From the NCBI GenBank assembly GCA_003244255.1, contig QHCD01000061.1:1-64000 (forward strand): a stretch of DNA of 64,000 nucleotides. The letters run 5' to 3'. The notes beneath the pieces are model-generated. The model saw only the letters and a list, made by a program, of their open reading frames with translations, was not told where the DNA came from and made no database searches. The translations under genes and the position numbers were made by a program. Numbering within the stretch: the first letter of the stretch is position 1; the number at the start of each line of letters is the position of its first letter. Of this stretch, positions 2,169-12,916 are shown one piece after another. The DNA is from Pseudonocardiales bacterium. GTDB lineage: Bacteria > Actinomycetota > Actinomycetes > Mycobacteriales > QHCD01.

Positions 2169-3491
2169 TCACCCAGGGCCTGAATGCGTGACCCGCGGCG
2201 GCGGGCGGTAGTACTCGACGATCTTCACGGCGACGTGCGCGGCCAGCCGGTCGTCGGGGTCCGCCAGGTTGAGGCCGGTCAGTACCTCGATCCGGCGCAC
2301 CCGGTACGCGACCGTGTTGGCGTGTACGTGCAGCCGCTCGCCGGCGTGCTTCATGCTTCCCTTACAGCGCAGGTATTCTGACAGCGTTGGTAACAGGTCG
2401 AGCTGACGTTCGTCGTCGTAGGCGATGATCGCGCCCAGCACGTCGTCCGCGTAACGCCAGAGCTCGGTCTCGTTGCCGATCCGCAGCAGCAGGCGGTAGA
2501 TGCCCAGATCCTCGTAGCTGACCACCGGATCGTCGTGACCGACCCGCGCCCCCATCTCGGCCGCCTGTTCGGCCTGTCGATAAGCCGCGGGCGCATGCTC
2601 GGCCACCGTCGTCGGCTCCGACAGGCCGGCGCGGACCCGGCCGGTGCCGCCGTTGCGCCGCAAGACGTCGACGATCAGCCGTCGCGGGTCGGTCGCCACG
2701 TCATCGGGTACCAGCGCGACCACGGCGCCGTCGCGGACCACGGCGATCGGTCCGACGACGTCGCCCGAGAGCCCTGCCGCAAGGCGATCGGCGAGCCGAG
2801 CACCGGCAGGTGCACCCGTGTCGTCCGCGATCCGTAACAGGGCGACGCAGAACGGCGCCGCGGCGAGACCGGCCGCGCGCGCCTTCTGCCGGGCGTCGTC
2901 GGTGTCGACGAAGTGTCCCGACAGCAGGGCCTCGACGACGGCGCGGCGGTACCGGAGTCCGAGCTCGGTGCTGGTGCGCTCGTGTGCGAGGGTCAGCGCG
3001 AACAGTGGCGCGGCGTAGGTCGTGGTAAGCAGGTCGAGATCGTCAGACATCGACTGACCCGAAACGTCGTCGAGCACCAGCAGGTAGCCGAGGGGCCGGT
3101 CCTCGACGACGATGGGGGCGACCAGGAATCCCTGCGACAGAAGCGATCCGGGTACCGCGGGCACCCGCAGCGGCCGGCGTTCACCGGCGAGCGCCTGCAT
3201 CAGCCGGGCGACGCTCGGATCACGCTGGCTCCAGGTCGGCGACCCGTCGACAGCCCCCGCTTGTGCGCGCGGCGTGAAGGCCGCGTCCAGCAAGACGATC
3301 GTGCGGCCGACGAGAGCGGCGTAAGCGGTGGTCAGTTCGGCTGGGCCCACTCCGCGCAGCGCCGCATCCGCCAGCTGATCGTGCACCTCGGCGATCCGGG
3401 AGTACTGGGCAGCCATCGGGGCGCCGGGCGCCGACCGCTGTCGCGGGCGAGCCGGCTCGCCGTCCACCCTCGCGGGTTTCTTGGCGGTCAT
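2169..3491 (-). CDS. PucR/CdaR-type helix-turn-helix regulator
   Basis: This is a 440-residue transcriptional regulator. A variable sensory region (about 30-180) precedes a central GGDEF-like CdaR region (about 200-320). The C-terminal PucR HTH (about 370-430) carries LLPTLSEYLRCKGSMKHAGE and LHVHANTVAYRVRRIEVLTG, typical of HTH_30 proteins. Such regulators often activate neighbouring catabolic operons in response to a metabolite. Its ATG overlaps the stop of the upstream methyltransferase/MTHFR gene by 4 bases (ATGA), so it is translated as part of the one-carbon operon and is probably its dedicated regulator. The ligand is unknown. Confidence 0.88.
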   Translation of the reverse strand: MTAKKPARVDGEPARPRQRSAPGAPMAAQYSRIAEVHDQLADAALRGVGPAELTTAYAALVGRTIVLLDAAFTPRAQAGAVDGSPTWSQRDPSVARLMQALAGERRPLRVPAVPGSLLSQGFLVAPIVVEDRPLGYLLVLDDVSGQSMSDDLDLLTTTYAAPLFALTLAHERTSTELGLRYRRAVVEALLSGHFVDTDDARQKARAAGLAAAPFCVALLRIADDTGAPAGARLADRLAAGLSGDVVGPIAVVRDGAVVALVPDDVATDPRRLIVDVLRRNGGTGRVRAGLSEPTTVAEHAPAAYRQAEQAAEMGARVGHDDPVVSYEDLGIYRLLLRIGNETELWRYADDVLGAIIAYDDERQLDLLPTLSEYLRCKGSMKHAGERLHVHANTVAYRVRRIEVLTGLNLADPDDRLAAHVAVKIVEYYRPPPRVTHSGPG

Positions 3492-5437
3492 GCCGTGTCC
3501 CTTGCCGCGACCAGCGACCGCACCAGGCCCACCGCCTCGGCGGCGCGCTCATAGGACAACCGGACGACCACGCCCGCGGCGAGACCGCCGAGCACCGCCA
3601 CCATCTCCAGGGCTCGCTTCGTCGCCGCGGCGGGTGTCTGCGCACCCGCGACGACCGAGGGCGCGCTGACGACGCCCGGTGTCTCGCGGCTCTGGGCCCG
3701 CAGCAGCCGCTGATCGGCGTGCGGAGCGATGCTGACCAGTACTGGCACGACGACGCCGCGGTCGCGCAGCAGCGAGAGCATCCGGCCGGCGCGGTGGGCG
3801 TCGTAGACGACGTCGGTCACCAGGAAGTGCGCGCCCGCCCGGACCTTCGCCAGTGCGCGATCGACCTCCGTCCCGACGTCGAGCGCCGCCGTGCGGATGC
3901 CCGCGCCGACCACGAACCGGGTGGCATCGCGGATGGCGACGCCGTGACAGTCGACACCGACGTTGAGGCCCGCAAGCAGCGAGATCAGCCCGAGCGAGTC
4001 GACCGTCGTCTGCATGCCAGCGTCCGGGTAGTCGCCCGCGACCCGCGCCGATCCGGTTCGGCAGATCACCGTGCGCAACCCGAGAGCGTGCGCGCCGAGC
4101 AGATCCGCTTGCAGGGCAGGTAATCCGCGATCCACCGCCTCGATCGAGAACATGACCTCGATGCCGACACGCTCACGCGCCACCACTCCGGCCGCCACTG
4201 GCGAGACGCTGGTGCGCGGCGGTTCCGGCTCGGTCACCGCTATCCGATCGGCGCCGGCATCGCGCAGAGCGGCGGCGAGTTCGACGAAGGTGTCGACATG
4301 CTGGTCGCGCGGGGTCGGCAGTCCTGGTACGACGACGAATCGTCCGGGGGGCGGCCACCCAGCCAGGTCGCGGGCCGGGTGCTCCGCTGGCGCGGGCGGG
4401 ACCAGGCGCAGTCCGCGCGAGCGGCTCGGCGGAATGCGGACAGCAGGACCCATGCCGTCCAGGGCCGACGCGATGGCACGCACGTGGGCCGGCGTGGTGC
4501 CGCAGCAGCCGCCGATCAAGGTCGCGCCAGAGGCGACGAACCCCGGTGCTGCTTCGCCGAAGTAGCTGGCGTTGCGGGCATAGCGCACCTGGCCGCCGAG
4601 CCGCCGCGGCACACCGGCATTCGGCTGCACTGACACCGGAAGGCTGGTCGCCGCGGCGAACTCGGCGATGACGTCGTGCAGCGCGGCTGGGCCGACCGTG
4701 CAGTTGGCACCGATCGCGGCGACGTCGTAGCCGCCGAGTACCGACGCCGCGGTGGCCGGATCTTCCCCCCGCAGCGTGCAACCGTCGTCGCCGAAGGTCA
4801 ATTGCGCGATCACGGGCAGGTCGCAGGTGGACAGCGCGACCTCCACGGCCTGCACAAGGGATTCGAGGTCGCCGAACGTCTCCAGCACCAGCACGTCGAC
4901 CCAGTCGGCGAGCGCGTCGATCTGCTCGCGCAAGGTGGCCGCACGAGTCTCGGCCGGCACCCGGGTGAGCGCCGGCGCCGACAACGCCGGCCCGACCGAG
5001 CCGGCGACGAGCACCGGCCCGTCTGGGTGCTCGGACGCGGTCTCGGCCGCCTGGCGGGCGAGCCGAGCACCCGCGATGTTGATCTCGGCGACGTTCTCCT
5101 CCAGCCCGCGCTGGCCGAGCCGCAGCCGGTTCGCGTCAAAGGTGTTCGTCTGCAACAGCCGCGCTCCGGCGGCGACGTAGGCCTTGTGCAGGTCGGCGAC
5201 CAGCGCGGGGCGGCTCAGGTTCAGCTCGGACAGCGACCGGTCGAGCGGCACGCCGGCGGTGTGCAGCATCGTCCCCATCGCGCCGTCGCAGACGACGATG
5301 CGCCGGGCGAAGTCCGTGCGGGCTCGTGCGGTGCGACGATCGCCGTCCGGCGCGCGGTGTCCTGTCAACCGGGCACCCGCCTTCCAGCCAGCCGCCCCAG
5401 CGCGGTGCGACGTCGCCCGCGGTATCGGTGCTCTCAC
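3488..5437 (-). CDS. homocysteine S-methyltransferase / methylenetetrahydrofolate reductase fusion
   Basis: Two domains are fused, as in Bacillus YitJ-type proteins. The first (from about residue 45 to 340) is a homocysteine S-methyltransferase with VVCDGAMGTML, and a zinc site from GANC and GGCCGTTP. The second (about 360-649) resembles the MTHFR barrel (TEPEPPRTSVSPVAAG, VICRTGSARVAGDYPDAG). Together they could reduce methylene-THF and pass the methyl group to homocysteine, or act from another methyl donor. GTG 5437 overlaps the stop of a 25-codon ORF (GTGA), which suggests coupling. TTG 5368 is an alternative that would remove a low-complexity N-terminus. It ends in an ATGA overlap with pucR. 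A separate MetF and a core methionine synthase in the same operon duplicate both activities. Confidence 0.85.
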   Translation of the reverse strand: MRAPIPRATSHRAGAAGWKAGARLTGHRAPDGDRRTARARTDFARRIVVCDGAMGTMLHTAGVPLDRSLSELNLSRPALVADLHKAYVAAGARLLQTNTFDANRLRLGQRGLEENVAEINIAGARLARQAAETASEHPDGPVLVAGSVGPALSAPALTRVPAETRAATLREQIDALADWVDVLVLETFGDLESLVQAVEVALSTCDLPVIAQLTFGDDGCTLRGEDPATAASVLGGYDVAAIGANCTVGPAALHDVIAEFAAATSLPVSVQPNAGVPRRLGGQVRYARNASYFGEAAPGFVASGATLIGGCCGTTPAHVRAIASALDGMGPAVRIPPSRSRGLRLVPPAPAEHPARDLAGWPPPGRFVVVPGLPTPRDQHVDTFVELAAALRDAGADRIAVTEPEPPRTSVSPVAAGVVARERVGIEVMFSIEAVDRGLPALQADLLGAHALGLRTVICRTGSARVAGDYPDAGMQTTVDSLGLISLLAGLNVGVDCHGVAIRDATRFVVGAGIRTAALDVGTEVDRALAKVRAGAHFLVTDVVYDAHRAGRMLSLLRDRGVVVPVLVSIAPHADQRLLRAQSRETPGVVSAPSVVAGAQTPAAATKRALEMVAVLGGLAAGVVVRLSYERAAEAVGLVRSLVAARDTA

Positions 5438-5511
5438 CGAATCGTAGCCGCGTATTCCTCGCCCGCGAGCACGGTGGCCCAGGCACGGCCGTCGATGATC
5501 GTCGCGATCAT
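5434..5511 (-). pseudogene. 25-codon ORF resembling a collapsed folD
   Basis: This tiny ORF begins at an ATG overlapping the fchA stop (ATGA) and ends in a TGA overlapping the next GTG (GTGA), so it keeps the translational-coupling geometry of a real operon gene. Its peptide starts MIATIIDGRA, like the FolD N-terminus (..ILDGKA..). It continues WATVLAGEEYAATIR, which resembles the FolD segment LATVLVGDDPAS..YVR that lies about 30 residues further on in intact proteins. The simplest reading is a folD gene (methylene-THF dehydrogenase/cyclohydrolase) reduced by internal and 3' deletions. A short match like this could also be chance. Confidence 0.45.
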
Positions 5512-6122
5512 GCGGTCGTGCCCGCCGCCTGCTGCGCCGCCCGCGCGGCCTGCTCGGCGACGCGGACCGCAGCAGCGGCTCGATCGAGGAGCTCGGGTGG
5601 AAGCTTGCCCGCCCGCACATTGAGCTCGGCCAGCGTCGATGCCGCGCGGGCAGAGCCGGCGGCGAGAAAGCCTGCTGTACAAGCATCTCCGCGCAGGTTC
5701 GGGTTGCCGTCGCGGGCGATGTTCGCGGCGTCGAGCGCGATCCGCCCGGCCGTTTCGGCGATCAGGACCGGCACCGTGGCGGCCTCCGTCCAGGCGGCGT
5801 GCAGCGCCCCGCGACGGCCATCGGGATCGACGTCGCGCGGCGATCGCAGCGCCGCCAGGACCTGGCCGAATGCCCGCCCGTCCCGTTCTGCCAGCTCGGT
5901 CACCTCGCCGCGATGGCCGTCTGATCGCACGGCGATCTGCTCGGCGTCGACGACGTCGCCGGACGCGAACCGCGCCGCCATCGCGACCAGGCTCGCGGCC
6001 ATCGCCGCCGTCATCGCCGCGACCGCGCCGCCGCCCGGCGTCGGTTCCCGCGATGCCACCAGATCCAGGAATCGACCGAGCCGCAGACCGATGAAGCCGT
6101 CGTCATCGGTCCCGCCGTCCAC
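5508..6122 (-). CDS. fchA: methenyltetrahydrofolate cyclohydrolase / formimino-THF cyclodeaminase family
   Basis: This is a roughly 204-residue all-helical protein of the FTCD C-terminal family. The start region (FLDLVASREPTPGGGAVAAM) holds the characteristic PxPGGG folate-site motif, followed by Ala-rich helices (MAASLVAMAARFASGD). Family members interconvert 10-formyl-THF and 5,10-methenyl-THF (FchA of methylotrophs) or deaminate formimino-THF. Its place directly after formate-THF ligase argues for the cyclohydrolase role. No ATG lies near the domain start, and GTG 6122, about 20 bases after the fhs stop, gives a normal length. No histidine-degradation genes are nearby. Confidence 0.82.
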   Translation of the reverse strand: MDGGTDDDGFIGLRLGRFLDLVASREPTPGGGAVAAMTAAMAASLVAMAARFASGDVVDAEQIAVRSDGHRGEVTELAERDGRAFGQVLAALRSPRDVDPDGRRGALHAAWTEAATVPVLIAETAGRIALDAANIARDGNPNLRGDACTAGFLAAGSARAASTLAELNVRAGKLPPELLDRAAAAVRVAEQAARAAQQAAGTTA

Positions 6123-6142: not shown

Positions 6143-7840
6143 TCAGGACAGACCCACGATCTCGCCGTCGTCGTCGATGTCGATGCGAATGAGCGCGGCC
6201 GCCGTGCCGAGCCCCGGCATCGTCCGGACGTCCCCGCAGATCGGATAGACGAAGCCGGCACCGACCGAGGCCCGCACCTCGCGGACGGGCAGCCGCCATC
6301 CGGTCGGTGCGCCGAGTTTCTTGGGATCGGAGCTGATCGACAGGTGTGTCTTCGCGATGCACACCGGGAGCGAGCCGAAGCCGGCCTGCTCGTAGGTGTC
6401 GAGCGCCTTGGCCGCGGCCGGCGCGTAGTCGACGCCGTCAGCGCCGTACACCCTGGTGGCGACGGTCTCGATCTTGTTCCGCAGGCTCATGTCGTCGGGG
6501 TAGAGCGGCGCGTAGTTCGACGGTTCGTCCGCCGCCTCCGCAACGGCTTCGGCGAGCTCGGTGGCACCACGGCCGCCGTCGGCAAAGTGGGTGCAGACGG
6601 CGGCGCGCGCATCGCAGTCCGCTGCGATCTGCCGGATCGCCTCGTGTTCGGAGGCGTGGTCGGTCGGAAACGCATTGATCGCCACGACCGGTGATACGCC
6701 GTGGATGCGGCAGTTCTCGATCTGCTTGCGCAGGTTCGCGGCCCCGGCGTGCACGTCATCGGTGTTCTCGGCCAGCAGGTCGTCCGACAGCGGCTTGCCG
6801 GCGACGATCTTGTACTTGCCCGAATGTGCCTTCAACGCACGCACGGTCGCGACGACGACGGCAGCGTCGGGGGCCAGGCCCGATGCACGGCACTTGATGT
6901 TGAAGAAGCGCTCAGCGCCCATGTCGGCGCCGAAACCTGCTTCGGTGATGAGGTAATCACCGCCGTGAATGGCGATCCGGTCGGCGACGACGGAGGAGTT
7001 ACCGGTGGCGATGTTGCCGAACGGTCCCGTGTGCACCAGCACCGGCGTGTTCTCCAGCGTCTGCAGCAGGTTGGGCTTGATCGCCTCCCGCAATATCACC
7101 GCCATCGAGCCGGCGGCCCGCAACTGCTCGGCGGTCACCGGTTCGCCGCGGCGCGTGTAGCCGACGACGATGCGTCCGAGCCGCTCGCGCATGTCACGCA
7201 ACGACGTCGCGAGTGCCAGCAGCGCCATCACCTCTGAGGCTGCCGTGATGTCGAACCCCGTCTGGCGGGGCACGCCGTCGGGGCGCCCGCCGAGACCGAG
7301 CACGATGTTGCGCAGGCTGCGGTCGTTGACGTCGAGCACCCGCCGCCAGGTGATGTTGTGCGCGTCCAGCCCGAACTCGTTGCCCTGGTAGAGGTGGTTG
7401 TCGATGACGGCCGAGAGCAGGTTGTGCGCCGCCGTGACGGCGTGCATGTCGCCGGTGAGGTGCAGGTTCAGGATCTCCATCGGTACGACCTGGCTGTAGC
7501 CACCACCCGCCGCGCCGCCCTTGATGCCGAACGTCGGGCCCATCGAGGGTTGCCGCACGGAGACGGTGGCCCGCTTGCCGATGTGCGCGAAGCCCTGTCC
7601 GAGGCCGACGGTGGTCGTGGTCTTGCCCTCGCCGAGGGGGGTGGGCGTCACAGCTGTGACCACGACGTACTTGGCCCTGGGACGGTCCGCGAGCTCGTCG
7701 ATCGCCGCCAGCTTGATCTTCGCCACCGAGTCGCCGTACGGCTCGAGCAGGTGCGCCCCGATGCCCATCGACTCTGCGATCTCGCTGAGCGGCTTGAGGC
7801 TCGCGCCCCGAGCGATCTGCAGATCACCGGGGAACGCCAT
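6143..7840 (-). CDS. fhs: formate-tetrahydrofolate ligase
   Basis: This 565-residue enzyme ligates formate to THF using ATP, giving 10-formyl-THF; the reaction is reversible and can yield ATP. The P-loop TPLGEGKTTTTVGLGQG (about 65-82) and the signature SMGPTFGIKGGAAGGGYSQV (about 99-118) are intact. Later conserved blocks such as TEAGFGADMGAERFFNIKC are also present, and the length is normal. The ATG at 7840 overlaps the adenosine kinase stop (TGATG). Many actinobacteria lack fhs, so it points to deliberate C1 input or output by this operon. Confidence 0.96.
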   Translation of the reverse strand: MAFPGDLQIARGASLKPLSEIAESMGIGAHLLEPYGDSVAKIKLAAIDELADRPRAKYVVVTAVTPTPLGEGKTTTTVGLGQGFAHIGKRATVSVRQPSMGPTFGIKGGAAGGGYSQVVPMEILNLHLTGDMHAVTAAHNLLSAVIDNHLYQGNEFGLDAHNITWRRVLDVNDRSLRNIVLGLGGRPDGVPRQTGFDITAASEVMALLALATSLRDMRERLGRIVVGYTRRGEPVTAEQLRAAGSMAVILREAIKPNLLQTLENTPVLVHTGPFGNIATGNSSVVADRIAIHGGDYLITEAGFGADMGAERFFNIKCRASGLAPDAAVVVATVRALKAHSGKYKIVAGKPLSDDLLAENTDDVHAGAANLRKQIENCRIHGVSPVVAINAFPTDHASEHEAIRQIAADCDARAAVCTHFADGGRGATELAEAVAEAADEPSNYAPLYPDDMSLRNKIETVATRVYGADGVDYAPAAAKALDTYEQAGFGSLPVCIAKTHLSISSDPKKLGAPTGWRLPVREVRASVGAGFVYPICGDVRTMPGLGTAAALIRIDIDDDGEIVGLS

Positions 7841-8826
7841 CAGAGCTGCCCGCCCGCCAGGTGCGGACGGATGTCATCGGCCGCATCCTCGCCGTAGGCC
7901 TCGCTCAGGCGCTTGATGAACTGCTCGTTCTCGAACTCGTACTCCTGCGGGCCGACCGCCTCGAGCGACAGCGTTGCGAGCAGGCAGCCGACCTGCATCG
8001 CGCGTTCTTCGGTGACCCCCCAGGTCGTCGCCGCGAGATATCCGGCACGCAGCGCGTCGCCGACGCCGGTCGGGTCCGACTTGTGCCGTTCGGGCGCGGC
8101 CGGAACCGAGAGCACCTGCTGGCTCTTGCGGGCGATCTCGACGCCCTTCGACCCGAAGGTCGTCACCTGCGCGCCGACGCGGTCGAGGATTTCCTCACGA
8201 TCCCAGCCGGTCTTCTGCTCCAGCAACTCGCGCTCGTATCCGTTGGTGAAGACGTGCGTCGCGCCGTCGATGAGCGCCCGCAAGCCCTCGCCGTCCATCC
8301 GCGCGATCTGCTGCGACGGGTCGGCAGCGAACGGAAATCCTTCCTTGCGGCAGGCCTCGGTGTGCTTGAGCATTGCCTCGGGATCGTCTGGACTGATCAC
8401 CACCAGCTCCAGCTCGTCCACTGTGGACACGATCGAGGTGAGGTCGATCTCCCGCGCCTCGGCCATGGCTCCCGCGTAGAACGACGCGATCTGGTTCTTG
8501 TCGGTGTCGGTTGTGCAGAGGAACCTTGCGGTCTGTTTCGTCTCGGAGATCCGCACCGCCCCGGTGTTGACACCGTGGTCCTCCAGCCACGGGCGGTAGG
8601 ACTCGAAATCCTTCCCCACCGAGCCGACCAGCAGCGGACGCAGGCCCAGCAGGCCCATGCCGAAGGCGATGTTCGCGCCAATTCCGCCGCGACGGATCTG
8701 CAGCTCGTCGACCAGGAACGACAGCGAGATCTCCTCCAGATGCCCGTCGACGAGCTGGTCGCGGAACCGACCTGGAAACTCCATCAGGTTGTCGGTGGCG
8801 ATCGAACCGGTGACGACGATGCTCAT
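7840..8826 (-). CDS. adoK: adenosine kinase (PfkB family)
   Basis: This 328-residue ribokinase-fold kinase closely resembles the mycobacterial adenosine kinase. It begins IVVTGSIATDNLMEFPGRF and contains the AADPSQQIARM region and the catalytic anion-hole motif DPTGVGDALRAGYLAAT (catalytic Asp near residue 256). It phosphorylates adenosine to AMP. Inside a methyl-cycle operon its likely role is to pull S-adenosylhomocysteine hydrolysis forward by removing adenosine; no sahH or metK is visible in the window. It starts 35 bases after the core methionine synthase stop and is coupled to fhs downstream. Confidence 0.92.
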   Translation of the reverse strand: MSIVVTGSIATDNLMEFPGRFRDQLVDGHLEEISLSFLVDELQIRRGGIGANIAFGMGLLGLRPLLVGSVGKDFESYRPWLEDHGVNTGAVRISETKQTARFLCTTDTDKNQIASFYAGAMAEAREIDLTSIVSTVDELELVVISPDDPEAMLKHTEACRKEGFPFAADPSQQIARMDGEGLRALIDGATHVFTNGYERELLEQKTGWDREEILDRVGAQVTTFGSKGVEIARKSQQVLSVPAAPERHKSDPTGVGDALRAGYLAATTWGVTEERAMQVGCLLATLSLEAVGPQEYEFENEQFIKRLSEAYGEDAADDIRPHLAGGQL

Positions 8827-8861: not shown

Positions 8862-9875
8862 CTACCCGTGCACCACGGACGGCTGGAGCTCGGCACGCAC
8901 GAGGGCCGCTCCCGCCACCATGGCCGTGAGCTTGCCCAGCGCGACTTCCGGTGGTGTGTGGCGCAGTCCGCAGTCGGGGTTGACCACGATCGACTCCGCC
9001 GGCAGTACCTCGACGGCGCGCCGGACCCGTCCGGCAACGGTCTCGGCCGTCTCGACCTCGGTGGACTTCACGTCAATAACGCCGACGCCGACGGCGCGAT
9101 CCCAACCGAGCCGGTGCAGCAGCTGCAGGTCGTCGTATCCCTTGCGCGCGAACTCCAGCACCAGCTGGTCGACCCGCGCCTGCAACACCGACGGGAACAG
9201 GAAGTCGTAGTGCCCTTCCCACGTCGGCCGCGCGTACCGGTTCCCCCAGCAGATGTGCAGGCCCCACGACGCGGGAACGCCGTCGGTGACGATGTTCACA
9301 GCCTCGATGGCGAGCGGGACGGCGTCGGGGTAGCCGGCGAGGAACGGCTCGTCGATCTGCAGGAAGCGGGCGCCCGCGTCGAACAGTTCCCTGGCCTGCA
9401 CGTTCAGCAGCCGGGCGAGCGAGCGTACCAGCTCGGTTTCATCCGGCCGATCGCCGTTGCGCAGGCGTCGCGACAACGAGAACGGACCGGTGAAGGAGAA
9501 CTTGATCGGCCGATCGGTCTGCTGCCGGGTAAAATCGAAATCAGCGGCGAAGCCCAGGCTCTGCTGGCCGTCGGATCCGAGCGGCCGCACCAGCTCCGCG
9601 TCGTAGTAGTCGTAGTAGAAGTCCTTGCCCTGACCGCGGATCGACACCTCTGGGATGCGGGCCAGCAGATAGTCGATGTCGTTGTCGCGCCGCAGTTCGC
9701 CGTCGGAGACGACGTCGATGCCCGCGCGTTCCTGGTCCTTCACCGCCGCCTTGATCGCCACCTCTTCGATCTCGGTCAGGTGGTTCGCGCTGATCCGGTG
9801 TCGATGGAAGTCGGTCTTGATCCGCTCCAGCCAGCCCGGCACGGAGTACGACCCGACAATCGAGGTCGGCAGCAT
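8862..9875 (-). CDS. core-type cobalamin-independent methionine synthase (MetE C-terminal domain only)
   Basis: This roughly 337-residue protein corresponds to the catalytic C-terminal barrel of MetE, without the N-terminal half. Zinc-ligand motifs are visible: LHICWGN (His and Cys), a Glu in the following region, and NPDCGLRH (Cys) near the C-terminus. Early motifs TSIVGSYSVPGW and SDGELRRDND fit the family. Short MetE proteins use methyl donors other than methyl-THF-polyglutamate, for example methylated corrinoid protein, so the donor here is uncertain. ATG 9875 matches the usual family start. GTG 9914 or 9911, which overlap or abut the previous stop, are alternatives that add about 12 residues. 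Confidence 0.85.
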   Translation of the reverse strand: MLPTSIVGSYSVPGWLERIKTDFHRHRISANHLTEIEEVAIKAAVKDQERAGIDVVSDGELRRDNDIDYLLARIPEVSIRGQGKDFYYDYYDAELVRPLGSDGQQSLGFAADFDFTRQQTDRPIKFSFTGPFSLSRRLRNGDRPDETELVRSLARLLNVQARELFDAGARFLQIDEPFLAGYPDAVPLAIEAVNIVTDGVPASWGLHICWGNRYARPTWEGHYDFLFPSVLQARVDQLVLEFARKGYDDLQLLHRLGWDRAVGVGVIDVKSTEVETAETVAGRVRRAVEVLPAESIVVNPDCGLRHTPPEVALGKLTAMVAGAALVRAELQPSVVHG

Positions 9876-9913
9876 CGGCAGCCCGGGAATCGGCGCTCTG
9901 GGCTGGGCCACCA

Positions 9914-11389
9914 CTAGTCCCGTACCTGCGCGGTCATCGTCACGATGTTCGTGCCCGTGCGGTGCGCGAACCGCGCGAAGCCGACGTCGAATCCGGCGCG
10001 GCCGCCGATATGGCGCAGCAGCGGGCCGTTGCACCAGTTCACCACCGAGCCGTCGTACTTCCCCGGCCCCCGGAACGCGTTCTGGAACTGCTGGACGTCG
10101 GTGACGAACAGGTCGTGGCACAGCAGCCGTCCGAACGGATGCAACAGCGGCAGGGTGTCGACGAAGCTCGCGACGGCCCCATTGTTGACGTGCATCCGGA
10201 TGTCGCCGTCGGATTCCACTAGCGGCTGCAGGATCTCACCGGACACCCGCTCTGCGATGCGATACATGTCGAGGCCCGGGAGCGGCACATAGCGCTCCTC
10301 GAGCCGCAGCGCGGCCCACAGCTCGCGCCACAGCGTGACGGCGACCTCCGACGAGGGGAACTGGTCGGGCCGCGTCTCGGCCAGCAGGGCCGGCCCGAGC
10401 CGGAGCAGCTGGCCCACCGTGGGCCGGATGGTCTCCACCGCACAGCCGAGGTCCTCGGCAATAAGCGTCGCGTCGTCGGCGGTGACATAGGCGCGGGACT
10501 CGACCCGGTAGTTGCGCCCACCGATGCGTGCGACCTCCTCGTTGGGCAGGTTGTCGTACACATTGGACACATAGACCAGGAAGATCTTGCCGCGCAGGAA
10601 TCCCAGCGCGGTCGTGGGCGACCTCGCATCCAGCGCCAGCGCACTGATCCGAGCCTCGTGGTCGGCGACCGTGATCCTCGCCTGTTCCAGGACGTGCGGT
10701 GAGTAGTCGCACATCAGGTAGTTCAGTCGCCCGTAGTAGGCGGTACCCCGAGCACGATCCATCGCCCGGAACTCATCGAGCCACACCTTGGCCTGTCCGC
10801 CGTTGCCGACCCCGAGCTCGACGACGTACAGCTCCTCGGGGAGGGAGTTGCGCGCGGCGAGATCGTCCCAGACACCGAACATCTGGCCGAGCAGCTCTCG
10901 CACGGCGTCGGTGTTGCGGGCGTCGCTCTCGCCACCGGGCAGGGCCTGCTCGTAGAGCCGACCGGTGGCCTTCTCCCACAGGTCGAGTGCCCGCCAGTAC
11001 AGCGCGTTGAAGTCCCAGACGCAGCTCTCGGTGGTGTGCACCCACGGTTCCAGGTAGCAGCGGTGCAGACCGTTGTCCGCGTACCCGCGAAGCAGGGCGC
11101 GGGTGGTTTCGGCGAGCGGCCCTTCGGCGCTGCGCCGCAGGTCGACCGCGATCTCCAGATCGCCGTCGGCCGGCGCGCCGCCGGCGGGACCGTTGGACAG
11201 GATCGTGCGGACGTCGATCTGTTCCCGGAAGTTGTCCTTGTACTGGATCCAGTCGCAGACGACGCGCAACCGCGAGAGGTCCACCGAATCGGTGTCCCGC
11301 AACGCTGCCATGATCGGTGCCAGTGTCGCCGCCACGTCGGTGGCCTTCGCCCCGCGCAACCGCGAGGTGGGGCGGACGTCAACGAGCAT
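9914..11389 (-). CDS. MidA-like SAM-dependent methyltransferase of unknown substrate
   Basis: This is a 491-residue protein with a Rossmann methyltransferase core in its middle. Motif I is VVELGVGNGG (about 195-205), motif II is YLMCDYSPHVLEQA (about 228-242), and an acidic loop VYVSNVYDNLPNEEV follows (about 275-290). The pattern recalls the MidA/NDUFAF7 family (PF02636). The N-terminal 180 and C-terminal 150 residues are not familiar; the latter includes FRGPGKYDGSVVNWCNG. The ATG at 11389 follows GAGAGGAG at good spacing and overlaps the metF stop by 11 bases. In an operon that makes and recycles methyl groups this is the only candidate acceptor-specific methyltransferase, so it may define what the operon is for. 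Confidence 0.65.
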   Translation of the reverse strand: MLVDVRPTSRLRGAKATDVAATLAPIMAALRDTDSVDLSRLRVVCDWIQYKDNFREQIDVRTILSNGPAGGAPADGDLEIAVDLRRSAEGPLAETTRALLRGYADNGLHRCYLEPWVHTTESCVWDFNALYWRALDLWEKATGRLYEQALPGGESDARNTDAVRELLGQMFGVWDDLAARNSLPEELYVVELGVGNGGQAKVWLDEFRAMDRARGTAYYGRLNYLMCDYSPHVLEQARITVADHEARISALALDARSPTTALGFLRGKIFLVYVSNVYDNLPNEEVARIGGRNYRVESRAYVTADDATLIAEDLGCAVETIRPTVGQLLRLGPALLAETRPDQFPSSEVAVTLWRELWAALRLEERYVPLPGLDMYRIAERVSGEILQPLVESDGDIRMHVNNGAVASFVDTLPLLHPFGRLLCHDLFVTDVQQFQNAFRGPGKYDGSVVNWCNGPLLRHIGGRAGFDVGFARFAHRTGTNIVTMTAQVRD

Positions 11390-12356
11390 GCTCGTCTCCT
11401 CTCCCGGCGACGGCGCTGACCCGGGTGCGCGGGCCGACGCCGGCACGCTCGAGAATCTCCGGAATGCCGCGTTCGTAACCGAATGCCATCACGTGCACGC
11501 CGGCGACGCCGGGGATCTCCCGGATCTGCTGGATCGTCTCGACGCACAGGTCGACGCCGGCGTCGGCGATCCGGTCCTCGGGCACGGCGCGCAACCGCCG
11601 CCCGACGTCGTCCGGTACGTACACCCCCGGCACGTCGTTCGACACGTGCTGCAGTGCCCGCAGCGACCGCAGCGGGCCAACGCCCGCAAGAATGCCGCAG
11701 CGCTCGTGCAGGCCCAGGTCGCGAACCTGCTTCATCCAGTCGGCGAAGCCCGCGACGTCGAAGACGAACTGGGTCTGCACGAACTGCGCACCGACAGCGA
11801 CCTTCTTGCCGAGTCGACGGGCACGGAACTCCCGGGGGGGCGCGAACGGGTTCTCGACCGCGCCGATCAGCCACCTCGGCCGCGCCGTGAGCTCGCGGCC
11901 GGAGAGCAGCCGGCCCTCGTCGCGAAGCTCCCGCGCGGTCCAGGTCAGCTGCACGCCGTCGAGGTCGAACACGGGCTTCGCGTCGGGGTGGTCGCCGAAC
12001 CGCGGATGGTCGCCGGTGAGCAGCAGTACGTTGGGTATTCCGAGTGCCCCGGCGCCAATTAGGTCCGACTGCAGCGCGATGCGGTTGCGGTCGCGGCAGG
12101 TCAGTTGCACCACCGCCTCGACGCCGCCGGCCTGCGCGATCACGCAGCCCGCGAGGCTCGAGAGCCGGATGAATCCGCTCGGGTTGTCGGTTATGTTGGC
12201 GGCGTCGACGTGCCCGGCGAGCAGCGCGGCCTTGCGCCGGACCACCTCGGCATTCGCCCCGCGCGGCGGCCCGATCTCCGCTGTGGCGGCGAAGTGGCCG
12301 GCCCGCAGCGCTGCGGCGAGCGCCCCGGTGCCGCCGCTCTCGGGCAGATCGATCAT
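11379..12356 (-). CDS. metF: methylenetetrahydrofolate reductase
   Basis: This 325-residue MTHFR barrel reduces 5,10-methylene-THF to methyl-THF or runs in reverse. Visible features are the N-terminal ATAEIGPPRGAN (with the catalytic-region Glu), DAANITDNPSG, the flavin/folate region LLTGDHPRFGDHPDAKPVFD, and AVGAQFVQTQFVFD near residue 190, where family members have a conserved AxFxxTQ. The ATG at 12356 overlaps the stop of the MetV-like gene by 4 bases. This adjacency mirrors the metV-metF pairs of acetogens, where MetV is a small zinc-bearing partner subunit, so a MetVF-type complex is likely. Confidence 0.9.
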   Translation of the reverse strand: MIDLPESGGTGALAAALRAGHFAATAEIGPPRGANAEVVRRKAALLAGHVDAANITDNPSGFIRLSSLAGCVIAQAGGVEAVVQLTCRDRNRIALQSDLIGAGALGIPNVLLLTGDHPRFGDHPDAKPVFDLDGVQLTWTARELRDEGRLLSGRELTARPRWLIGAVENPFAPPREFRARRLGKKVAVGAQFVQTQFVFDVAGFADWMKQVRDLGLHERCGILAGVGPLRSLRALQHVSNDVPGVYVPDDVGRRLRAVPEDRIADAGVDLCVETIQQIREIPGVAGVHVMAFGYERGIPEILERAGVGPRTRVSAVAGRGDEHAR

Positions 12357-12916
12357 GCCGGCGGGCGGACGCTGTACTGGCGCGCCAGGCCGTCGCCATC
12401 GGTCCACAGGTCGTCGTCGCGACACTGCCAGTAGTTCACCCACGAGCTCTTGCCGAACTCCCGGTAATCCACCGGCCGCTGCAACTTGGCCAGATCGTCG
12501 CCGTGTCCGGCCGAGGCCGCCCGGTCATGGGCGGTCACCCACACGCACTGCCTGTCGGGGAAGACCTCGCAGCCGCCGGTCTGCGAGACGCCGCCGCACG
12601 GGCCGTTGCGCAGCTGCTTCGGGCACGTCATCGGGCATGCGTAACCGGTGGCCGGCAGCGTGCACTGGCCGCACATCTGGCAGCCGAAGATCCGCTCCTT
12701 GACCCGGCGCTCGACAGCCGTGAATGCGGCCTCGGCCCTCGGGTGCGCCTCCAGTGCGCGCGCGACCGTGCGATAGGCAGGGTTCGGAAGCAGCACCTGC
12801 CCGAGCCGGTACATCGCCCGCGGGTTATTCGCCGGACCGGTGGGCCGGATGGGACGGGGCCACTGCTCCCCGCCCGCTGCCGGCACCTCGGGCGCGCCGG
12901 TCGACCCGACGCTCAC
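12353..12916 (-). CDS. metV: MetV-like MTHFR C-terminal (zinc) domain protein
   Basis: This 187-residue protein matches the MTHFR_C family (PF12225). It has a cysteine cluster beginning FGCQMCGQCTLPATGYACP and continuing with MTCPKQLRNGPCGG, GGCEVF and RQCVWV. In acetogens such proteins (MetV) bind zinc and associate with MetF. A Pro/Gly-rich N-terminus precedes the domain. GTG 12916 overlaps the stop of the small upstream gene (GTGA), and its own stop overlaps metF (ATGA). A free-standing MetV in an actinobacterium next to MetF, Fhs and FchA suggests a Wood-Ljungdahl-like folate branch, run in an unknown direction. Confidence 0.82.
   Translation of the reverse strand: MSVGSTGAPEVPAAGGEQWPRPIRPTGPANNPRAMYRLGQVLLPNPAYRTVARALEAHPRAEAAFTAVERRVKERIFGCQMCGQCTLPATGYACPMTCPKQLRNGPCGGVSQTGGCEVFPDRQCVWVTAHDRAASAGHGDDLAKLQRPVDYREFGKSSWVNYWQCRDDDLWTDGDGLARQYSVRPPA

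What the first reader, a model, noticed from the sequence alone, without database searches (positions are those of the whole stretch)
9914..11389. Unassigned methyltransferase may set the purpose of the operon
The protein has clear SAM motifs (VVELGVGNGG, MCDYSPHVLEQA) flanked by about 330 residues not recognised as any known domain. It is the only methyltransferase in the operon without an assigned acceptor, and it overlaps metF by 11 bases. If the operon supplies methyl groups, this is the likely consumer; if it harvests them, this could be the entry enzyme.
Basis: partly seen in the sequence, partly recalled or inferred. Interest (0 to 1): 0.62.

Follow-up and report, generated by a model that had tools for sequence, protein, structure and literature searches.

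The report
Methyltransferase with its own SAM cycle
The gene encodes a previously uncharacterised methyl-transferring enzyme, distantly related to MidA, that travels between soil, desert and salt-loving actinobacteria together with genes that remake its methyl donor, so it probably makes some methylated compound in bulk; which compound is still unknown.

Summary
The ORF is real: 491 aa, minus strand, 9914-11389, with intact SAM motifs. It overlaps metF by 11 bp, and that exact overlap recurs in all nine loci that carry metF. Fold and Pfam place its core in the COG1565/MidA superfamily. It is not the MidA ortholog (a relative has both) and carries a ~115-residue N-terminal domain with no match. 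I found 15 orthologs in scattered actinobacteria. A core methionine synthase of a private clade follows directly in all 16 loci. Half also carry metK, always an extra copy forming its own clade (support 100/99), so it was inherited with the cassette. Adenosine kinase, SAH hydrolase, metF and formate/formyl-THF genes recur. One host, Haloechinothrix alba, also has a glycine-betaine cluster built alike: GSMT/SDMT-metK-adenosine kinase-metH-SAH hydrolase. Best reading: the enzyme is the SAM consumer of a dedicated SAM-regenerating cassette, probably methylating a small molecule made in bulk. The acceptor, and the methyl donor of the core MetE (no MesX found; no folate half in four hosts), remain unknown.

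The parts
9914..11389 (-). 491-aa class I SAM methyltransferase of the COG1565/MidA superfamily; new subfamily with an unrecognised N-terminal domain (about residues 1-115)
   Evidence: ORF and motifs; Methyltransf_28 in 11/15 orthologs; AF2 model and Foldseek; N-terminal domain without PDB match
8862..9914 (-). core (one-domain) methionine synthase, directly downstream; start codon uncertain (GTG 9914 or ATG near 9875)
   Evidence: Pfam Meth_synt_2 3e-36, no folate-binding half; Zn and homocysteine residues conserved; next to the MTase in 16/16 loci
11379..12356 (-). metF, methylene-THF reductase; overlaps the MTase by 11 bp
   Evidence: MTHFR 2.5e-33; overlap
12353..12814 (-). DUF5981, MTHFR C-terminal/MetV-like partner of MetF
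   Evidence: PF12225 8e-28; in 7/16 loci
7840..8826 (-). adenosine kinase (PfkB family)
   Evidence: PDB match to adenosine kinase E 1e-106
6143..7840 (-). formate--THF ligase
   Evidence: FTHFS 3e-249
5508..6122 (-). FchA-type methenyl-THF cyclohydrolase / FTCD_C
   Evidence: PF04961 9.5e-28, NF045657 below its cutoff
3488..5269 (-). homocysteine S-methyltransferase fused to an MTHFR domain
   Evidence: PF02574 9e-64 and PF02219; PRK08645; homologue beside the L003 cluster
2169..3416 (-). PucR-type regulator; homologues near 4 other clusters
   Evidence: HTH_30 2.7e-21; cluster c6

Best explanation
The protein is the methyl-consuming enzyme of a mobile, self-contained SAM-regeneration cassette. 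C1 units (in the window possibly from formate, via formate-THF ligase and FchA) are reduced by MetF/DUF5981 to methyl-THF; the core MetE remakes methionine from homocysteine; MetK (in the cassette, or the housekeeping copy in this genome) makes SAM; the 491-aa enzyme methylates its acceptor; SAH is split by SAH hydrolase and the adenosine is removed by adenosine kinase. Because a whole private SAM cycle is kept for one methyltransferase, the acceptor is most likely a small molecule made in quantity, as glycine is for GSMT/SDMT. Shown: gene content, linkage, co-inheritance of MetK, superfamily. Inferred: SAM use, flux direction, that methyl-THF feeds the core MetE, that the acceptor is a small molecule. 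Not known: the acceptor.
For: Intact SAM motifs invariant in 15 orthologs; MidA-superfamily fold and Methyltransf_28 profile. Core MetE adjacent in 16/16 loci; that MetE clade is seen only where the MTase is, in 395 class genomes. metK in 8/16 clusters; those genomes have another MetK elsewhere (for G789 and G790 partly on contig fragments), while the four genomes without a cluster metK have exactly one; cluster MetKs form one clade, 100/99, 0 of 500 shuffles. Window kinase is an adenosine kinase; SAH hydrolase in L003, disrupted remnant in L009. Precedent in one host genome: GSMT/SDMT-MetK-adenosine kinase-MetH-SAHH. Formate-to-methyl supply of SAM methyltransferases through FTL/cyclohydrolase/dehydrogenase was built in E. 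coli (PMC11887345).
Against: No acceptor gene or product is linked. PurU in 4 clusters releases formate from formyl-THF, which fits oxidation of C1 units better than supply. Five Geodermatophilaceae clusters hold only the MTase-MetE pair. The core MetE lacks the folate half, so methyl-THF as its donor is not shown. The window itself has neither metK nor SAHH in the cluster. Opp-type importers beside 4 clusters could mean catabolism. No enzymology was done.
Confidence: 0.7

Rival explanations
1. Methyl harvest: the operon demethylates an imported compound; methyl groups go to THF and are oxidised by MetF/DUF5981, FolD, FchA and FTHFS or PurU to formate, with this protein as the entry enzyme.
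For: PurU and FTHFS/FchA fit formate release; in marine-type actinobacteria DUF5981/MetF sit with MttB-like, corrinoid and pterin methyltransferases (gene identities read by eye there); Opp-type importers lie beside L008, L014, L015 and L017.
Against: No corrinoid or MttB gene seen in the annotated neighbourhoods; co-inherited extra MetK, plus adenosine kinase and SAHH, mark SAM consumption; the protein carries a standard SAM site.
Confidence: 0.1
2. Partner of the core MetE: known core methionine synthases depend on, or are predicted to depend on, a donor protein (corrinoid protein, MesX). The only invariant neighbour here is this protein, so it may deliver or gate the methyl group for the core MetE instead of making a methylated product.
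For: 16/16 adjacency; no MesX hit (but no positive control rang) and no MetE N-terminal half in four of twelve host genomes; MesA-D donors as described in PMC7857596.
Against: An outgroup homologue (L019, 39% identity) has no MetE on its 7.3-kb contig; a SAM fold is not a plausible source of methyl for methionine; MetF is in the operon as an obvious methyl-THF source.
Confidence: 0.1
3. A MidA/NDUFAF7-like protein arginine methyltransferase acting on a protein target, for example an enzyme of the operon or complex I.
For: Best six structural matches are COG1565/MidA; NDUFAF7 methylates Arg85 of NDUFS2 (PMC3829151).
Against: About 12% identity and TM 0.36-0.52 only; a private SAM cycle is out of proportion for a protein target; a separate PF02636 protein exists in G022; the extra N-terminal domain has no counterpart found.
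Confidence: 0.08

Closest known systems
MidA / NDUFAF7 (COG1565, PF02636 Methyltransf_28)
   Same: Fold of the catalytic core, SAM motif layout; profile match in 11/15 members; top six Foldseek hits
   Different: About 12% identity; an N-terminal domain of about 115 residues with no match; different neighbourhood; profile comparison with the divergent actinobacterial PF02636 set was negative; coexists with a PF02636 protein in G022
GSMT/SDMT glycine-betaine biosynthesis cluster with SAM-cycle genes (seen here in Haloechinothrix alba, L081)
   Same: One methyltransferase gene plus MetK, adenosine kinase, methionine synthase, SAH hydrolase
   Different: Methyltransferase is of another family; methionine synthase is core MetE instead of MetH; MetF/DUF5981 and formate or formyl-THF genes added; cassette MetK is a separate clade
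Core methionine synthases MesA-MesD (PMC7857596) and core-MetE of Dehalococcoides (PMC7005905)
   Same: One-domain MetE with the Zn and homocysteine residues kept
   Different: Private clade beside a SAM methyltransferase; best solved relative is 3RPD (MesD) at 195 bits over about 330 positions, no MesX found; far below the 560-bit (or roughly 55%-identity) thresholds those authors used for MesD

Membership tests
COG1565/MidA superfamily (PF02636) | Significant profile match | tested here: met
   11/15 orthologs at E<=0.01, best 1.6e-5; window protein itself only 0.015, below the curated cutoff
COG1565/MidA superfamily (PF02636) | MidA fold | tested here: met
   Ranks 1-6 of the PDB Foldseek search, E 6e-7 to 5e-6, TM 0.36-0.52; model pLDDT 77
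MidA/NDUFAF7 ortholog | Being the genome's MidA | tested here: not met
   G022 has a separate PF02636 protein besides this one; hhalign to that actinobacterial set negative
MidA/NDUFAF7 ortholog | Arginine methylation of the NDUFS2/NuoD subunit | not testable with these tools
   needs biochemistry
SAM-regenerating biosynthetic cassette (betaine-cluster kind) | SAM methyltransferase linked to MetK, SAHH, adenosine kinase and a methionine synthase | tested here: met
   All four in L003; subsets elsewhere; extra MetK clade. The window's own cluster lacks metK and SAHH
SAM-regenerating biosynthetic cassette (betaine-cluster kind) | Known acceptor/product | not testable with these tools
   no product gene linked
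GSMT/SDMT | Match to the glycine/sarcosine methyltransferase equivalogs | tested here: not met
   P0001 has no NCBIfam match, while the L081 enzyme passes NF051855
MesD/MesX methionine synthase system | DUF1852 (MesX) present | tested here: inconclusive
   0 of 12 genomes, but no positive control rang
MesB core MetE system | Wood-Ljungdahl CoFeSP present | not tested
   not searched in the host genomes

The most novel reading that the evidence does not exclude
The MTase and its core MetE form a dedicated two-enzyme system: a fifth kind of core methionine synthase, working without MesX and without a folate-binding half, obligately coupled to a MidA-fold methyltransferase that makes an undescribed bulk metabolite in diverse actinobacteria, parallel to betaine synthesis by GSMT/SDMT.
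Probability: 0.25. Interest if true: 0.72.

Novelty: new variant of a known kind. Interest (0 to 1): 0.48.

Why it matters
It points to an undescribed methylated metabolite in desert, soil and halophilic actinobacteria, gives a first functional context to a methyltransferase subfamily with no characterised member found here, and presents a core methionine synthase whose methyl donor is unknown. It is also a natural formate-to-methyl layout resembling what engineers built in E. coli (PMC11887345).

Tried and rejected
phmmer and profile search of PDB by sequence: no hit. tblastn of plasmids: none. hhalign against actinobacterial PF02636 proteins: no relation. N-terminal domain folded alone: no PDB match. 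Distance correlation of the MTase and MetE alignments: Pearson 0.84 but Spearman 0.12, driven by near-identical pairs, so not used. Promoter/terminator scan: no promoter-like match and one terminator-like match, fewer than expected by chance. First MetK tree had wrong-strand rows and was redone. Adenosine kinase copy number is not decisive: second copies in G022 and G787, but G000 has only the operon copy. Literature searches found no description of this gene pair in the library held.

Full report
The thing itself. The finding is on the minus strand: an ATG-started 491-aa ORF from 11389 to 9914. metF ends inside it (ATGCTCGTTGA). Every one of the nine loci with an upstream metF has exactly the same 11-bp overlap (coordinates, sequences), which is unlikely without selection on the junction.

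Family. The window protein alone gives only sub-threshold Pfam matches and no PDB match, but 11 of 15 orthologs match Methyltransf_28/MidA, best E 1.6e-5. The AlphaFold2 model (pLDDT 77, pTM 0.78) has COG1565/MidA structures as its six best PDB matches. The relation is distant: about 12% identity, TM 0.36-0.52. The first ~115 residues, with an invariant CDW(I)QYK-NFR block, have no solved counterpart even when folded alone. It is not the MidA ortholog: G022 has a separate PF02636 protein as well, and a profile of such actinobacterial proteins does not align with this family.

Distribution. The gene is rare: 2 of 41 relatives, 1 of 395 genomes of the class, 2 of 396 of the phylum, the query genome counted each time. 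A scan of one genome per species returned 14 orthologs in Geodermatophilaceae, Haloechinothrix, Microbispora, Streptosporangiaceae, Thermomonosporaceae, Nocardiopsis, Trebonia and Desertimonas. A 39%-identical outgroup (L019) has no MetE on its 7.3-kb contig, so the methyltransferase family is wider than the MetE pairing.

Neighbourhood. In all 16 loci the next gene is a core MetE that keeps the zinc and homocysteine residues (one row has a gap at the Ser column) and forms its own clade: in 395 class genomes only the window's genome scores 618 bits, the next 210. metF is present in 9 loci, DUF5981 in 7, metK in 8, purU in 4, adenosine kinase in 3, SAH hydrolase in 1 plus a disrupted remnant in L009. 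The window's PfkB protein matches solved adenosine kinases at E 1e-106.

Direction. Genomes with a cluster metK carry another metK elsewhere (in the fragmented genomes G789 and G790 partly as pieces), while the four genomes without it have exactly one. The cluster MetKs form a single clade (100/99) apart from housekeeping and betaine-cluster copies, and no shuffle of labels was as clustered. A private SAM synthetase inherited with the cassette, plus adenosine kinase and SAH hydrolase, is what a SAM consumer needs and is of no evident use to a methyl-harvesting pathway. The strongest parallel was found in one of the host genomes: Haloechinothrix alba carries a fused GSMT/SDMT (NF051855 above cutoff) followed by MetK, adenosine kinase, MetH and SAH hydrolase. 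The cassette of the finding has the same logic with another methyltransferase and another methionine synthase.

What remains open. The acceptor cannot be read from the sequence. No common product gene travels with the cassette; four clusters lie next to Opp-type importers and two have an F420-type oxidoreductase directly upstream, where other clusters have metF. The donor of the core MetE is also open: four of twelve host genomes have no MetE N-terminal half and none shows MesX (no positive control rang), while B12-binding domains in frames of about MetH size occur in most hosts (identity as MetH confirmed only for L081). PurU in four clusters fits C1 oxidation better than supply. In other actinobacteria DUF5981 and MetF accompany genes that read as corrinoid glycine-betaine-type demethylation, so those two genes alone do not fix a direction.

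Verdict. An uncharacterised MidA-superfamily methyltransferase that is most likely the consumer in a dedicated SAM-regeneration cassette (0.70). Methyl harvest (0.10), a methyl-donor partner of the core MetE (0.10) and protein arginine methylation (0.08) are the rivals.

Noticed in passing
window 3488-5269 (-): Homocysteine S-methyltransferase fused to an MTHFR domain (PRK08645-like): a second candidate methionine synthase beside the operon, also next to the L003 cluster.
   Followed up: partly
window 8862-9914 (-) and loci L003-L017: The core MetE is a private clade; no MesX found in the host genomes and no separate folate-binding half in four of them, so its methyl donor is unknown.
   Followed up: partly
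L081 3374-12935: Haloechinothrix alba betaine cluster: fused GSMT/SDMT, MetK, adenosine kinase, MetH, SAH hydrolase.
   Followed up: yes
L075-L078: DUF5981 of other actinobacteria sits with MttB-like, corrinoid-protein-like and pterin methyltransferase-like genes, apparently demethylation clusters.
   Followed up: partly
L009 12686-13092: Disrupted remnant of SAH hydrolase downstream of the core MetE in Haloechinothrix alba.
   Followed up: no
L014 3107-4024, L015 7091-8008: F420-type luciferase-family oxidoreductase (TIGR03560) directly upstream of the MTase in the two clusters that lack metF but have metK and an Opp importer; possible replacement of MetF.
   Followed up: no
L079 3188-4821 (-): An MTHFR-like protein paired with a second SAM methyltransferase elsewhere in the window's genome (contig C25), read by eye.
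   Followed up: no
L010 9607-9690: Short direct repeat between MTase and core MetE that copies the end of the MTase gene.
   Followed up: no
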